Shown piece by piece: positions 1 to 64,000 of a stretch of DNA of 64,000 bases; position 1 is the first letter of the stretch, and the number at the start of each line of letters is the position of its first letter. The stretch covers positions 1 through 64,000 of the forward strand of contig JANQQU010000072.1 of assembly GCA_028284905.1 (NCBI GenBank). Reading direction: 5' to 3'. The translations under genes and the position numbers were made by a program. This DNA comes from Calditrichia bacterium. Its GTDB lineage: Bacteria > Calditrichota > Calditrichia > RBG-13-44-9 > J075. The notes below the pieces were generated by a model, which saw nothing but the letters and a program-made list of their open reading frames with translations, was not told the DNA's origin and did not search any database.

Positions 1-1321
1 AGCCGTTGCTTTTAGTCCCGATGGCAACACCGTTATCACTGCCAGCGATGATAAAACCGCGAGATTGTGGCGCGTAGCGGACGGCAAGCCCATTGAAATG
101 ACTATGAATCATAACCATGCCATTCAAACCGTCGCTTTTAGCCCCGACGGCAACACCGTTATCACCGCAGGTTCTGATAGCACCGCGAGATTGTGGCGTG
201 CGGCTGACGGCACGCCCATTGGACAGACGATGAATCATGAAGGTGCCGTTCGAGCCGTCGCTTTTAGCCCCGACGGCAGCACCGTCATCACCGCTAGTCT
301 TGATGGAACCGCGAGATTGTGGAGCGCGGCTGACGGCACCCCTATCGGACAGGTTATGAATCATAACTTTCAAGTTTTAGCCGCCGCTTTTAGTCCCGAC
401 GGTAAAACGATCATTACCATAAGCACTGGTTACACCGCGAAGTTGTGGAGTGCGACTGGCGGCACACCCATTGGACAAGCTATGAATCATAGGGCTACGA
501 TTCAAGCCGTTGCTTTTAGCCCCAACAGTAGCACGGTCATCACCGCAGGTTCTGATAGCACCGCGAGATTGTGGCGTGCGGCTGACGGCACACCCATTGG
601 ACAGACGATGAATCATAACGGTATAATTCGAGCCGTCACTTTTAGCCCCGACGGCAACACCATAATCACTACTAGCTCTGATAGAACCGCGAGATTGTGG
701 CGCGCAGTGGACGGAACTCCCATTGGACAGAATTTAAATCATAATTTTCGCGTTGAATCCGCCGTTTTTAGCTCCGATGGTAACACGGTCATCACCGCAA
801 GCTCTGATAACACCGCGAGATTGTGGCGCGCGGCTGACGGTACACCCATTGGACAAACAATTAATCATAACGGTGTTATTTTAGCCGTCACTTTTAGTCC
901 CGACGGAAAAAATACACTCAGCATAACTAATTCTTGGCTACACTACTCCAACATACCTTCGGATACATTGGCATTGCCATTGCAAATTAGCAGATGGAAA
1001 CCATTTTCAATTAACCAAGCGCGATACGCTATTTACGATTTTTTTTTCCTTGACGTTCAAGCCTATAAACCAACATTTCGCTTCATAGATGCCGAAGGGA
1101 AAAAAATACAAATGATCCGTTTCCGTTCCGACCGGGAATTTTTTGTCGATACGGTCGATTTCAGCCAGCCCGGCGCCCCTCCCATTACTGGGGAGCCAGC
1201 GGCATTGTTAGCGGAATGGGAACGGAAACTCGGCCTGAGACTGAATACAACCACTGGCGAGATTGCGCCGCGTTATCCTGTCCCTAAGGAAGAGCGAGAT
1301 TTCTTAAGACTTATCCGCTAA
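1..1321 (+). CDS. WD40 repeat protein, 5' end outside window
   Basis: The reading frame is open from base 2, so the gene starts before the window. Seven complete WD40-type repeats of 42 residues (126 bp) and part of an eighth are visible, each with a FSPDG, a TARLW and a NH element. Such repeats fold into a beta-propeller used as a protein-interaction scaffold. The last ~130 residues are a non-repeat tail with a hydrophobic stretch and a GEPAALLAEWERKLGL segment, a kind of tail I associate with large bacterial WD40 proteins that carry an upstream signalling or NTPase domain; such a domain could lie outside the window. The repeats are also very similar at DNA level (for example 169-230 against 547-608). 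The partner and function are unknown. It converges with the next gene, 21 bp away. Confidence 0.85.
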   Translation, partial: AVAFSPDGNTVITASDDKTARLWRVADGKPIEMTMNHNHAIQTVAFSPDGNTVITAGSDSTARLWRAADGTPIGQTMNHEGAVRAVAFSPDGSTVITASLDGTARLWSAADGTPIGQVMNHNFQVLAAAFSPDGKTIITISTGYTAKLWSATGGTPIGQAMNHRATIQAVAFSPNSSTVITAGSDSTARLWRAADGTPIGQTMNHNGIIRAVTFSPDGNTIITTSSDRTARLWRAVDGTPIGQNLNHNFRVESAVFSSDGNTVITASSDNTARLWRAADGTPIGQTINHNGVILAVTFSPDGKNTLSITNSWLHYSNIPSDTLALPLQISRWKPFSINQARYAIYDFFFLDVQAYKPTFRFIDAEGKKIQMIRFRSDREFFVDTVDFSQPGAPPITGEPAALLAEWERKLGLRLNTTTGEIAPRYPVPKEERDFLRLIR

Positions 1322-59945: not shown

Positions 59946-61853
59946 TTATTTTACTGGTTTTCGGGAAAGATAGGTATCCATTTTTCCCGAAGCCACCCAA
60001 CCTTGCCAGCCTTGTTCCGTTTTTACCCGGTACCAGCGAATATTTTGGGAGAGATCTACAACTTTCTCTTCCAGAATCCACAGCTTTGTGCCGCGGACTA
60101 ACGATTGAAGCACTTTCGTCTCTTTAACCCCCGGTGCATTTCTTAAATTCAATGATATTCGGGTGTTCACGTATCTTTCCTGTAATAACTGATATTCAGT
60201 AGCTGTGTCTTGCGCTTGCCAATGTGCTAAAATCGCATTGCCTACATTGCCGGCACCGATAACAGCAAAAAAGAACAGCGTTAAAACCAGCGTAAGCACC
60301 GCGCTATAGGCAATATGCGAATATCGCCAGGCGCCCTCCTTTTGCTTTGAGAGAAAATTTTTCCGCTTTTTTTTCAGCAACCATTTTAACGGTTCGAGAA
60401 TTGCTTCCGGCTGTAGCGCATAATTTCCTCTTTCCGCTTTTCGTAAATGGCAGGAATAATATCGGACATTATCGAAATCATTAGCGATTAATCTTAAGAG
60501 CTTTTCCTGCCCGTTTGCCAGCAACCACTGGCGAATCGCATATGAAGTTGCCGCGTTATCCCGCTGGCGACTACTGCCCTGCATATCCGGAAAAGATTTA
60601 TCAGTCAAAGTGTGATTGGTAATAATTACCGCGAGTGGATTCTTAAATGCACCATCGAAATGCGACTTCACCTGGCGTAGACGCCGAATAAAGCGATTAT
60701 ACGACTGCCGGGGTGTTTCGCTGTTTAACAATTTCATTTGGCGAACAATCTTTTGGGCATCGATTAAAAAGAAAATACCGCCATTGTCGGTGGGAAGATC
60801 GTAAAAGTCCTCTGCATCTAAACGATTGGAATTATCATCATAGAACCGCAGTAATTGATCCTGCTGGCGTTTTTCCATTCGCTGAATAACCAGCTCGGCC
60901 GGGAAAGCAACGGGCTTCTCATAAGCCTTTTCTAAATAGTTGTTTTGTTTACGAAATCTGATTCTGTGCCCCACCTTGCGACTGCGTTGCTTTAACGCTG
61001 TAACTAAAATATCGAGGTAGCTGGCTTTATCCGTAGCGGATTCCCCGATTATTATCAAGTTCGTGCGGTTTCCCGCCTGGGCTTTTCCACCGTTTAAAAC
61101 ACTCTTACAATGCGGGCAAGAGGCACTTAATGCTTCTCTGCCCAGAAAAGACAGTACCGGCAATTGTTGCCGGCGACATTGGCAACGCCGAAAAAAAATA
61201 CCATAAGGTCCCGGCAATAATCGCCGATGAAGCACACCACATTCCGGGCAATGATAGTGGAGAAAACTGATATTCTTTTTACAGGAATTATTGGAACAGC
61301 GCAGAGAGAAATGACGCCAAAACGAAACGCCCTCCTCCATTGCTCGCAAGAGGATAAAGAGAATGAACTGCACAAAAAAAAGCGCGGAAACTACCAGCAG
61401 ATGCAGCATTCCAGCCAGATGCAGCGTCAATAATACAATCGGCACCGCTAAGGCTAGGAGCGCAAAGACAACTACCCCAAACGGCCAGGAAACAAACCAG
61501 AATGGTGTATCAACCAGCCGAATATTCCAGCGAATAATATTACGGTAATCCTCGATGCAATACTGCAGTGATTTACGAAAGACATCCCGTAAATCCAGAA
61601 ACGCCCGGTAATAAAAATAATTTTTAAATGCCGGCTCATCTCCCTGCGGTTTTACCTGTTGGGCTGCGGGTAATAAATTCAACCAGGCCTTGCGGATCGC
61701 CCGGCAATAATTAAAAAGTGTTCTTAGCAGTGCCGCCAGTCCCCCGCCACAGGCAAGATATAGCAGCACGTTTTCTACAAACCAATTGAGCGCAAATATA
61801 TATACCAATGAAACAATAATAGCGCCAATGGCGGTTCTTATTATCGCAATCAT
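59946..61853 (-). CDS. Double-GTPase-like membrane protein with degenerate G motifs and SH3b domain
   Basis: Residues 1-45 and ~118-172 are membrane segments. Residues ~186-252 hold zinc-ribbon-like pairs (CPEC at 202-205, CQC at 224-226, CPHC at 246-249) around GPYGIF and LPVLSFLGR, as in the Double-GTPase 2 family. The P-loop-like domain (~264-495) has GESATDKAS at 270 where G-x-x-x-x-G-K-[ST] is expected; DDNSN (339-343) instead of D-x-x-G-E; and TNHT (412-415) instead of [NT]-K-x-D. A last membrane helix (~513-536) leads to an SH3b domain (~560-626, LNLRNAPG and GWQGWVASG). It is probably a pseudo-GTPase. It converges with prs. Confidence 0.65.
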   Translation of the reverse strand: MIAIIRTAIGAIIVSLVYIFALNWFVENVLLYLACGGGLAALLRTLFNYCRAIRKAWLNLLPAAQQVKPQGDEPAFKNYFYYRAFLDLRDVFRKSLQYCIEDYRNIIRWNIRLVDTPFWFVSWPFGVVVFALLALAVPIVLLTLHLAGMLHLLVVSALFFVQFILFILLRAMEEGVSFWRHFSLRCSNNSCKKNISFLHYHCPECGVLHRRLLPGPYGIFFRRCQCRRQQLPVLSFLGREALSASCPHCKSVLNGGKAQAGNRTNLIIIGESATDKASYLDILVTALKQRSRKVGHRIRFRKQNNYLEKAYEKPVAFPAELVIQRMEKRQQDQLLRFYDDNSNRLDAEDFYDLPTDNGGIFFLIDAQKIVRQMKLLNSETPRQSYNRFIRRLRQVKSHFDGAFKNPLAVIITNHTLTDKSFPDMQGSSRQRDNAATSYAIRQWLLANGQEKLLRLIANDFDNVRYYSCHLRKAERGNYALQPEAILEPLKWLLKKKRKNFLSKQKEGAWRYSHIAYSAVLTLVLTLFFFAVIGAGNVGNAILAHWQAQDTATEYQLLQERYVNTRISLNLRNAPGVKETKVLQSLVRGTKLWILEEKVVDLSQNIRWYRVKTEQGWQGWVASGKMDTYLSRKPVK

Positions 61854-61963: not shown

Positions 61964-64000
61964 CTATTGCTGGGGATTAAAAAACCGCAATGAAAACTGA
62001 TCAGTATGTTTTATCTCCTTTTTCCAATCTTTCCATAAATCTTTTAATTCCGCATCGGATTGGATCATCCGATTTATTGTCTCTTTCCCGGAAATACTGA
62101 TATCATTATAAATTTGCTGTAATTTCTCCGCATATATGTAAGTCAGGTTTTCATCCTTGTTTTCTGCTACGTTGTATTTCCGCGCGACAACTTTAAAAAG
62201 AGATGGCCAGGCTGCTGCGGAAAAATTCCCACTTCTGAGCAGCGCATCCAGCACATCTGCGAGCAGCTGCCAATAAAGCGGCGCATCGGCCATTTCACTT
62301 AGATCGAGTAAAAAATTCAATCCGTCCTTTTGGCCATCATGTAAGGAGAGAAATTTCAGGAATGCTTTTTCCAGTATTGCAGAAATGGCCAGGCGATTTC
62401 CTTTGGGCAATATCTCCAGTGCCGATCCAACCAAAGCCAGGCGATCTTTGGTATTCGGTGACTGTCCATAGCGGAAATGCCAGTCGCTCAACGATAAAAC
62501 CTGATGCATCCGCTGAAATTCCGGGACCAGCGATAGGTTTGCAATATCCAGGTCAACATTAATTGCCTGATTAAACTCCGATTCAATTCGGGTGAATATT
62601 GACACTAATTCCTGCATGGCACCCTTGGGAAAGAGAATATGCCGGGAAAGCGCCACTCCTTCTACTGCCAGTTTCAGAAAAGATTTTCGCCGCAGGACAT
62701 TCCCGCCAAACTCATGGATTAAGGGCAAAGCAGTTGCCGGTGCCATATGCCCTTCCGGCCATCCCAATTGAAAAAACATTTCGTAATCTTCATCGGTAAG
62801 TATCAATAAATCATATTGTTTATATTCTCGTAGAGTTTCCAATGTCAGCATTTCTTTTTGGGGATTGTTCGCAATTTCGGCCCCTTTCAGCCGTAGCAAT
62901 AATCCATAATCATTGGTGCGTTTCGCTCGCTCACAGATTTTCTGATAAGTGATCTTCCTCCCCAGGAAAGGGCGAATATGCTGCATCATTTTTTCACTGC
63001 GGGAACAGGCACTAACAATGCGATAAATGACGAGTTCCAGTTCAAAGAAGAGATCCTTCTCGTAAAAAACAGCCAACAATTGCTGTACCGCCGGTTGGTG
63101 AAAAGATTTTACCAGGTGTTTGCGAATAACGTGAATAATCGCCGATTCCAGCTGATTGAGCACTTTGATAACTGCAGCAAAATTCAGAATAGCAGCAATA
63201 TGCCGGGTCTTTTTACTGGCCAATAGCATTTTACGTAACGTCTCGACAGATTTACGGCGAATCCTGAGATCCGTAAAATTTTTCTGGATGAGCGCTGTTG
63301 CTTCCCGGATCTCGGAAATTTTACCATTGGCTAACAGCGTATAAATCACCCAATCGATGAGAAAGCCGAGTACATCCTTCCGGGATAGTGTATCATCAGC
63401 CAGCAGCGTTTTGAAGAATTTTTGTGTGGCTTTCCGAATATCTTCATCGGCGGCAACCGGTTGTTTTAATAATTCCATTAAACCAGTGAGCACTTCCCGG
63501 GATTTGTATAGTTTCTTATTTTCTGTGAATGCCAATCCGGCCAGAATATCATTTTTATCAAAGGCGGCTTGTTGCAGGGAAAGATACAATTGCATCAGCT
63601 CATCCATCTCCCGGGGTGTAAATGATTGCTCCAGGCGGGAGAGGAAATTCTTGAAGTTTAGCACCGTGGTAAATTGATCGTTAGCGTACCAATTACTCAG
63701 CGTATTTGCAAAAGCATTTTCCCGGGGCAATTCGGAAAATTTTTCATTGATGAAATCAAAAACATGATAATCCTGGAAGAATTCGGATTCTGTTATAAAA
63801 TGCACCGTATCGGGATTACTGCCGCAAATCCGGGTATTATTATGGGAGGGATTCGCGGTAGAAATGGTAAAGGACAGTTTTTCCTGGAGATTTAAAGGTA
63901 AGGCCAGGGCTACAGCCCCAATCATGATGGCAATATATTCTGCCTGATCGGCAATTACCAAATGCCCGTCTTTATTTAAGGCATGCTGTACGGCGCTCGC
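61964..64000 (-). CDS. GAP1-like (GTPase-associated) protein, 5' end outside window
   Basis: The frame remains open to the window end. Residues encoded near 63960-64000 read VQHALNKDGHLVIADQ, close to the N-terminal Q-A-L-x-x-x-x-G-H pattern of GTPase-associated protein 1, and LSFTISTANPS with a G-S-N-P stretch follows at the place of the next conserved strand. The remaining ~600 residues are helix-rich, resembling the GAP1 middle and C-terminal parts, with no catalytic residue known. GAP1 proteins partner Double-GTPases in predicted conflict systems. The gene lies 110 bp upstream of the GTPase-like gene on the same strand. The true start lies outside the window. Confidence 0.6.
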   Translation of the reverse strand, partial: ASAVQHALNKDGHLVIADQAEYIAIMIGAVALALPLNLQEKLSFTISTANPSHNNTRICGSNPDTVHFITESEFFQDYHVFDFINEKFSELPRENAFANTLSNWYANDQFTTVLNFKNFLSRLEQSFTPREMDELMQLYLSLQQAAFDKNDILAGLAFTENKKLYKSREVLTGLMELLKQPVAADEDIRKATQKFFKTLLADDTLSRKDVLGFLIDWVIYTLLANGKISEIREATALIQKNFTDLRIRRKSVETLRKMLLASKKTRHIAAILNFAAVIKVLNQLESAIIHVIRKHLVKSFHQPAVQQLLAVFYEKDLFFELELVIYRIVSACSRSEKMMQHIRPFLGRKITYQKICERAKRTNDYGLLLRLKGAEIANNPQKEMLTLETLREYKQYDLLILTDEDYEMFFQLGWPEGHMAPATALPLIHEFGGNVLRRKSFLKLAVEGVALSRHILFPKGAMQELVSIFTRIESEFNQAINVDLDIANLSLVPEFQRMHQVLSLSDWHFRYGQSPNTKDRLALVGSALEILPKGNRLAISAILEKAFLKFLSLHDGQKDGLNFLLDLSEMADAPLYWQLLADVLDALLRSGNFSAAAWPSLFKVVARKYNVAENKDENLTYIYAEKLQQIYNDISISGKETINRMIQSDAELKDLWKDWKKEIKHTDQFSLRFFNPQQ

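What the first reader, a model, noticed from the sequence alone, without database searches (positions are those of the whole stretch)
60609..61046. Three GTPase motifs degenerate together: a likely pseudo-GTPase
Walker A reads GESATDKAS (Gly to Asp, Ser/Thr to Ala), the G3 site reads DDNSN and the G4 site reads TNHT. Loss of all three while the zinc ribbons and surrounding fold stay intact suggests selection for a non-hydrolysing scaffold or a shift to another ligand.
Basis: partly seen in the sequence, partly recalled or inferred. Interest (0 to 1): 0.72.

Follow-up and report, generated by a model that had tools for sequence, protein, structure and literature searches.

The report
Membrane pseudo-GTPase of bacterial conflict system
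A membrane-anchored protein that in its relatives is a GTP-driven switch of a suspected bacterial defence system has lost all its GTP-handling residues while keeping its anchors and zinc ribbons, and its operon has lost the other energy-using parts too, so the system probably runs as a fixed scaffold instead of a switch.

Summary
The 635-aa ORF at 59946-61853 (-) has N-terminal TM helices, two zinc ribbons, a degenerate G domain, a TM helix and an SH3 domain. It lies beside GAP1-N2, FNIII-like and GrpE genes: a GAP1-N2 'double-GTPase' (DO-GTPase2) system of Kaur et al. 2020. Its syntenic ortholog in a Calditrichota genome of the same family keeps G1 (GGGYSGKT), G4 (TKSD) and G5 (SALG). Every DO-GTPase homologue recovered keeps GxxxxGK[S/T]; this protein alone lacks it. 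G5 is lost too.

One correction: the fold is not evenly intact. Against a profile of Bacillota homologues, the zinc ribbons (57 bits) and C-terminal half of the G domain (42) score like the ortholog (63 and 45), but the half with P-loop and switches falls to shuffle level (2.2 against 16.2). G3 was already altered in the ortholog (DPGSD), so loss was probably stepwise.

The genome has no second DO-GTPase; the operon also lacks Hsp70 and part of the FNIII protein. All frames are open with coding-type codon usage. Best reading: a real pseudo-GTPase kept as a nucleotide-independent membrane anchor for GAP1, or less likely slow decay. AlphaFold models were too poor to test the pocket.

The parts
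59946..61853 (-). pseudo-GTPase gene, 635 aa: N-terminal TM helices, two zinc ribbons, degenerate DO-GTPase2-like G domain, TM helix, C-terminal SH3
61713..61853 (-). N-terminal hydrophobic segment, residues 1-47 (likely two TM helices)
   Evidence: hydropathy
61320..61517 (-). second hydrophobic segment, residues 113-178 (likely two TM helices)
   Evidence: hydropathy
61107..61298 (-). two zinc ribbons, residues 186-249 (C186 C191 C202 C205; C224 C226 C246 C249), all Cys invariant in five homologues
60720..61067 (-). N-terminal half of G domain (residues 263-378; P-loop and switches), eroded
   Evidence: 2.2 bits, 9 of 287 shuffles as good; ortholog 16.2 bits
61020..61046 (-). G1 site GESATDKAS, degenerate Walker A
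60822..60845 (-). G3 site FYDDNSNR (register plausible, not certain)
60369..60719 (-). C-terminal half of G domain (residues 379-495), conserved apart from G4 and G5
   Evidence: 42.4 bits, as ortholog (45.5)
60603..60626 (-). G4 site IITNHTLT
60432..60464 (-). G5 site RYYSCHLRKAE, SAxG lost
60222..60323 (-). C-terminal TM helix, residues 511-544
59985..60155 (-). SH3_3 domain, residues 567-623, predicted beyond the membrane
   Evidence: Pfam 27.4 bits, cut-off 27
61964..64000 (-). GAP1 gene (GAP1-N2 and GAP1-M, 853 aa), running past the window end to contig position 64525; followed outside the window by an FNIII-like gene (64677-65624) and a GrpE gene (65569-66309)

Best explanation
It is a true pseudo-GTPase: the membrane-anchored DO-GTPase of a GAP1-N2 conflict system that has lost canonical GTP binding and hydrolysis and is kept as a nucleotide-independent membrane scaffold. 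Shown: loss of G1, G4 and G5 (G3 site altered), intact zinc ribbons, conserved C-terminal half of the G domain, TM and SH3 parts, open reading frame, GAP1/FNIII/GrpE neighbours, no other DO-GTPase found in the genome. Inferred: zinc ribbons and G domain lie in the cytoplasm, the SH3 domain outside the inner membrane; the conserved C-terminal half holds the interface to GAP1; so GAP1 is tethered constitutively and signalling, if any, comes from the SH3/TM or FNIII side rather than from GTP. Any nucleotide-driven step left would be lent by the housekeeping DnaK through the dedicated GrpE.
For: Syntenic ortholog with intact P-loop, TKSD and SALG. Every confirmed DO-GTPase homologue keeps the P-loop. 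Region-specific erosion: TM+ZnR 78 against 86 bits, G C-half 42 against 45, G N-half 2.2 against 16.2. ZnR invariants kept 18/20, G-domain invariants 12/26, with losses on G1, G4 and G5. Four open genes with coding-type codon usage. GAP1-N2 and GrpE neighbours; this GrpE matches the system GrpE of a Bacillota relative at 48 bits, against 14.8 bits for this genome's canonical GrpE. No other DO-GTPase in the genome.
Against: No relative close enough to measure selection, so conservation of the degenerate state is untested (one genome only). GAP1-N2 scores lower here than in the relative (33.2 against 73.9 bits) and the FNIII protein is shortened, which also fits decay. K276 and D339 remain, so residual phosphate or other ligand binding is not excluded. 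AlphaFold models had mean pLDDT 36 and 38, so no pocket test.
Confidence: 0.6

Rival explanations
1. A relic in slow decay: the system lost its soluble GTPase and Hsp70, and the membrane GTPase then drifted without selection on its pocket, with no present function.
For: Soluble DO-GTPase and Hsp70 absent from the locus, FNIII protein lacking the N-terminal ~400 residues, lower GAP1 score.
Against: 635, 853, 315 and 246 codons all open with coding-type codon usage. Zinc ribbon and C-half conservation nearly equals that of the intact ortholog; general decay would have hit these too. GrpE and FNIII frames overlap, as in a translationally coupled operon.
Confidence: 0.2
2. The domain has shifted to another ligand: K276 and the first glycine still hold a phosphate or another small molecule.
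For: G270, K276 and D339 are kept although their neighbours changed.
Against: No recognisable new binding motif; the whole N-half is at shuffle level.
Confidence: 0.12
3. It still binds or hydrolyses GTP through migrated motifs or with a partner GTPase in trans.
For: Pseudoenzymes with migrated residues are known (PMC10211241).
Against: No P-loop or KxD elsewhere in the protein; no partner DO-GTPase found in the genome, although the profile does find the soluble one in the relative.
Confidence: 0.05
4. Sequencing or assembly error made the motifs look degenerate.
For: None found.
Against: Several separate sites carry substitutions in frame between conserved flanks; the other frames hold stops and no motif.
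Confidence: 0.01

Closest known systems
Membrane-type DO-GTPase2 (PF19993) of GAP1-N2 systems (Kaur et al. 2020, PMC7159879)
   Same: N-terminal TM segments, two zinc ribbons, TRAFAC-type G domain, C-terminal TM helix, SH3 fusion, GAP1-N2 and GrpE neighbours
   Different: G1, G4 and G5 lost, G3 altered, N-half eroded; no PF19993 match; sole DO-GTPase-like protein of its genome
Syntenic ortholog in Calditrichota HKST-UBA06 (JAGRBF010000320.1, L009/L043 494-2809)
   Same: same domain order, same convergent PRPP synthetase, IMPase and PMM genes next door
   Different: P-loop, TKSD and SALG intact; G3 site DPGSD; the genome also holds a soluble DO-GTPase2 and Hsp70 beside its GAP1-N2 gene
Eukaryotic pseudoGTPases (septins, p190RhoGAP, CENP-M, dynein LIC)
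   Same: G fold kept as an interaction module after loss of nucleotide hydrolysis or binding (PMC10731463, PMC10211241, PMC5593906, PMC4359372)
   Different: unrelated family, eukaryotic

Membership tests
DO-GTPase2 (PF19993) | match over the curated Pfam cut-off | tested here: not met
   no hit for this protein; its homologues L071, L070 and L072 pass (44.4, 37.1, 37.6 bits)
DO-GTPase2 (PF19993) | common descent with family members | tested here: met
   27-31% identical to a syntenic ortholog, which groups with PF19993-positive proteins
DO-GTPase2 (PF19993) | GTP-binding motifs G1 and G4 and Walker B D-x-A-G-E | tested here: not met
   GESATDKAS, DDNSN, TNHT
GAP1-N2 GTPase-centric conflict system | GAP1 with an N2 domain next to the GTPase gene | tested here: met
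   GAP1-N2 28.7 bits and GAP1-M 32.4 bits, cut-offs 24
GAP1-N2 GTPase-centric conflict system | FNIII-repeat protein in the operon | tested here: inconclusive
   no Pfam hit over cut-off, but 28% identical over 251 aa to the protein at the same place in the relative's operon; the FNIII fold is judged by eye
GAP1-N2 GTPase-centric conflict system | Hsp70/GrpE theme | tested here: inconclusive
   GrpE present; Hsp70 absent from the locus, only distant Hsp70s elsewhere
GAP1-N2 GTPase-centric conflict system | an active GTPase component | tested here: not met
   no other DO-GTPase found in the genome
pseudo-GTPase | no nucleotide binding or hydrolysis in vitro | not testable with these tools
   needs a binding assay

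The most novel reading that the evidence does not exclude
A DO-GTPase conflict system that has become nucleotide-free: soluble GTPase gone, dedicated Hsp70 gone, membrane GTPase erased, yet GAP1, FNIII-like, GrpE and the membrane scaffold are kept under selection as a working system.
Probability: 0.4. Interest if true: 0.62.

Novelty: new variant of a known kind. Interest (0 to 1): 0.48.

Why it matters
DO-GTPase systems are thought to use GTP as the threshold switch of a defence response. A lineage that keeps the scaffold while losing every DO-GTPase active site is a natural test of which parts do the sensing and docking. The ortholog pair gives a before-and-after comparison with a likely halfway step (G3 altered first). 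The sections of Kaur et al. 2020 on these systems mention no inactive DO-GTPase, and a search for bacterial pseudo-GTPases gave no evident bacterial case among its four papers (titles and abstracts only).

Tried and rejected
Structure prediction of this protein and the ortholog from two-row alignments gave mean pLDDT 35.7 and 38.0; not used, and no fold search was run. PDB sequence searches gave nothing for the protein alone and only weak matches to the profile. Viral contigs and plasmids gave no homologue. The single genome-contig scan returned only the known ortholog. PADLOC and NCBIfam gave no system match. DO-GTPase1 was not found, but that search had no positive control. The last genome search hit a class of only four genomes. 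The first ORF on HKST contig C68 was tested as the missing GAP1 C-terminus: not significant against shuffles, so joining contigs C220 and C68 of that genome into one operon is inference from gene order. A P-loop-like string in another frame lies amid stops and was dismissed. Most weak PF19993 hits look like unrelated P-loop proteins and were left out of the motif count; the two weakest hits (L079, L080) also keep a P-loop but are not confirmed DO-GTPases.

Full report
What it is. The ORF at 59946-61853 (-) encodes 635 aa. Pfam finds only an SH3_3 domain over its cut-off, at the C-terminus. Hydropathy gives hydrophobic segments at residues 1-47, 113-178 and 511-544. Cysteines C186, C191, C202, C205, C224, C226, C246 and C249 form two zinc ribbons. 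The upstream gene (61964 to contig position 64525) is GAP1 with GAP1-N2 and GAP1-M domains over their cut-offs, and beyond it lie an FNIII-like gene and a GrpE gene whose frames overlap. This is the architecture that Kaur et al. 2020 (PMC7159879) describe for GAP1-N2 systems: a DO-GTPase with N-terminal TM helices, zinc ribbons and one C-terminal TM helix, some with SH3 beyond it, and a subset with Hsp70/GrpE.

The ortholog. Of 40 genomes searched in the phylum, only one other has a homologue. It is a genome of the same family; the matching contig is that of Calditrichaeota HKST-UBA06. Its protein is 771 aa with the same layout and is followed by the same convergent genes for PRPP synthetase, inositol monophosphatase and phosphomannomutase, so the locus is syntenic. 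It keeps GGGYSGKT, TKSD and SALG. Another contig of that genome carries Hsp70, an FNIII-type protein, a soluble zinc-ribbon DO-GTPase2 (GARNAGKS, SKID) and GAP1-N2, which runs off the contig end. That the two contigs join is inferred, not shown.

The motifs. Membrane-type homologues in four further genomes (L070, L071, L072, L083), taken here as Bacillota without a named record to confirm it, and the soluble ones all keep GxxxxGK[S/T]. Among positions invariant in the other four membrane-type proteins of alignment A2, the window keeps 18 of 20 in the zinc ribbons but 12 of 26 in the G domain; the losses include G271, G275 and T277 (G1), K413 and D415 (G4), and S469, A470 and G472 (G5). At G3 those proteins read DIAGE, the ortholog DPGSD and the window DDNSN. 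The serine at the +3 position is shared by the two Calditrichota proteins, which suggests that G3 changed before G1, G4 and G5. K276 and D339 remain.

Where the erosion lies. Against profiles built without window or ortholog, the two score 77.9 and 86.5 bits over TM+ZnR, 57.1 and 63.0 over the zinc ribbons, 42.4 and 45.5 over residues 379-495, but 2.2 and 16.2 over residues 263-378, where 9 of 287 shuffles did as well as the window. Maximum-likelihood branch lengths agree: window and ortholog 0.92 and 1.10 in the zinc ribbons, 1.89 and 1.39 in the G domain. The damage is therefore concentrated in the nucleotide-binding part.

Not an error or a dead gene. The other frames at the P-loop hold stops and no motif. 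All four genes of the operon are open, and their codon usage favours the annotated frame over the other frames.

The rest of the system. In this genome the profile search finds no other DO-GTPase, although the same profile finds the soluble one in the relative; two further searches agree. There is no Hsp70 gene at the locus; Hsp70s elsewhere are distant, the nearest lying beside the canonical grpE. The FNIII-like protein matches only residues 409-659 of the relative's protein. The GrpE is of the system type: it matches the GrpE of the other full system (L071) at 48 bits, whereas that one matches this genome's canonical GrpE at 14.8 bits. So the locus has lost, or never had, each nucleotide-using part.

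Mechanism. The best reading is a constitutive membrane anchor for GAP1: zinc ribbons and the C-terminal half of the G domain keep the protein contacts, and the SH3 domain faces outward. Contact with GAP1, topology and constitutive action are inferred. Septin pseudoGTPases (PMC10731463) give a precedent: loss of nucleotide at a dimer interface with the interface retained. Decay is the main rival. Structure prediction could not test the pocket.

Noticed in passing
L043:494-2809 (HKST-UBA06 ortholog), C-terminal ~110 aa: The ortholog carries an extra C-terminal region after SH3 that the window protein lacks; by eye it could be an NTF2-like domain, a fusion type reported for these systems.
   Followed up: no
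L043:494-2809, G3 site: DPGSD instead of DxAGE although P-loop, G4 and G5 are intact: this ortholog may bind GTP but hydrolyse it poorly.
   Followed up: partly
L071:8356-20000: A genome (probably Bacillota) with the full Hsp70-theme system in one run: membrane DO-GTPase, GrpE, two Hsp70s, a 776-aa protein at the FNIII position, soluble DO-GTPase, GAP1.
   Followed up: partly
L084-L111 (genus g551): One genus of the family of G654 carries a soluble-type DO-GTPase (about 384 aa, GVxGAGKS, YDGAGE) in most of the genomes that matched; neighbours not examined.
   Followed up: no
window 65-1321: WD40 beta-propeller protein of 418 aa at the window start.
   Followed up: no
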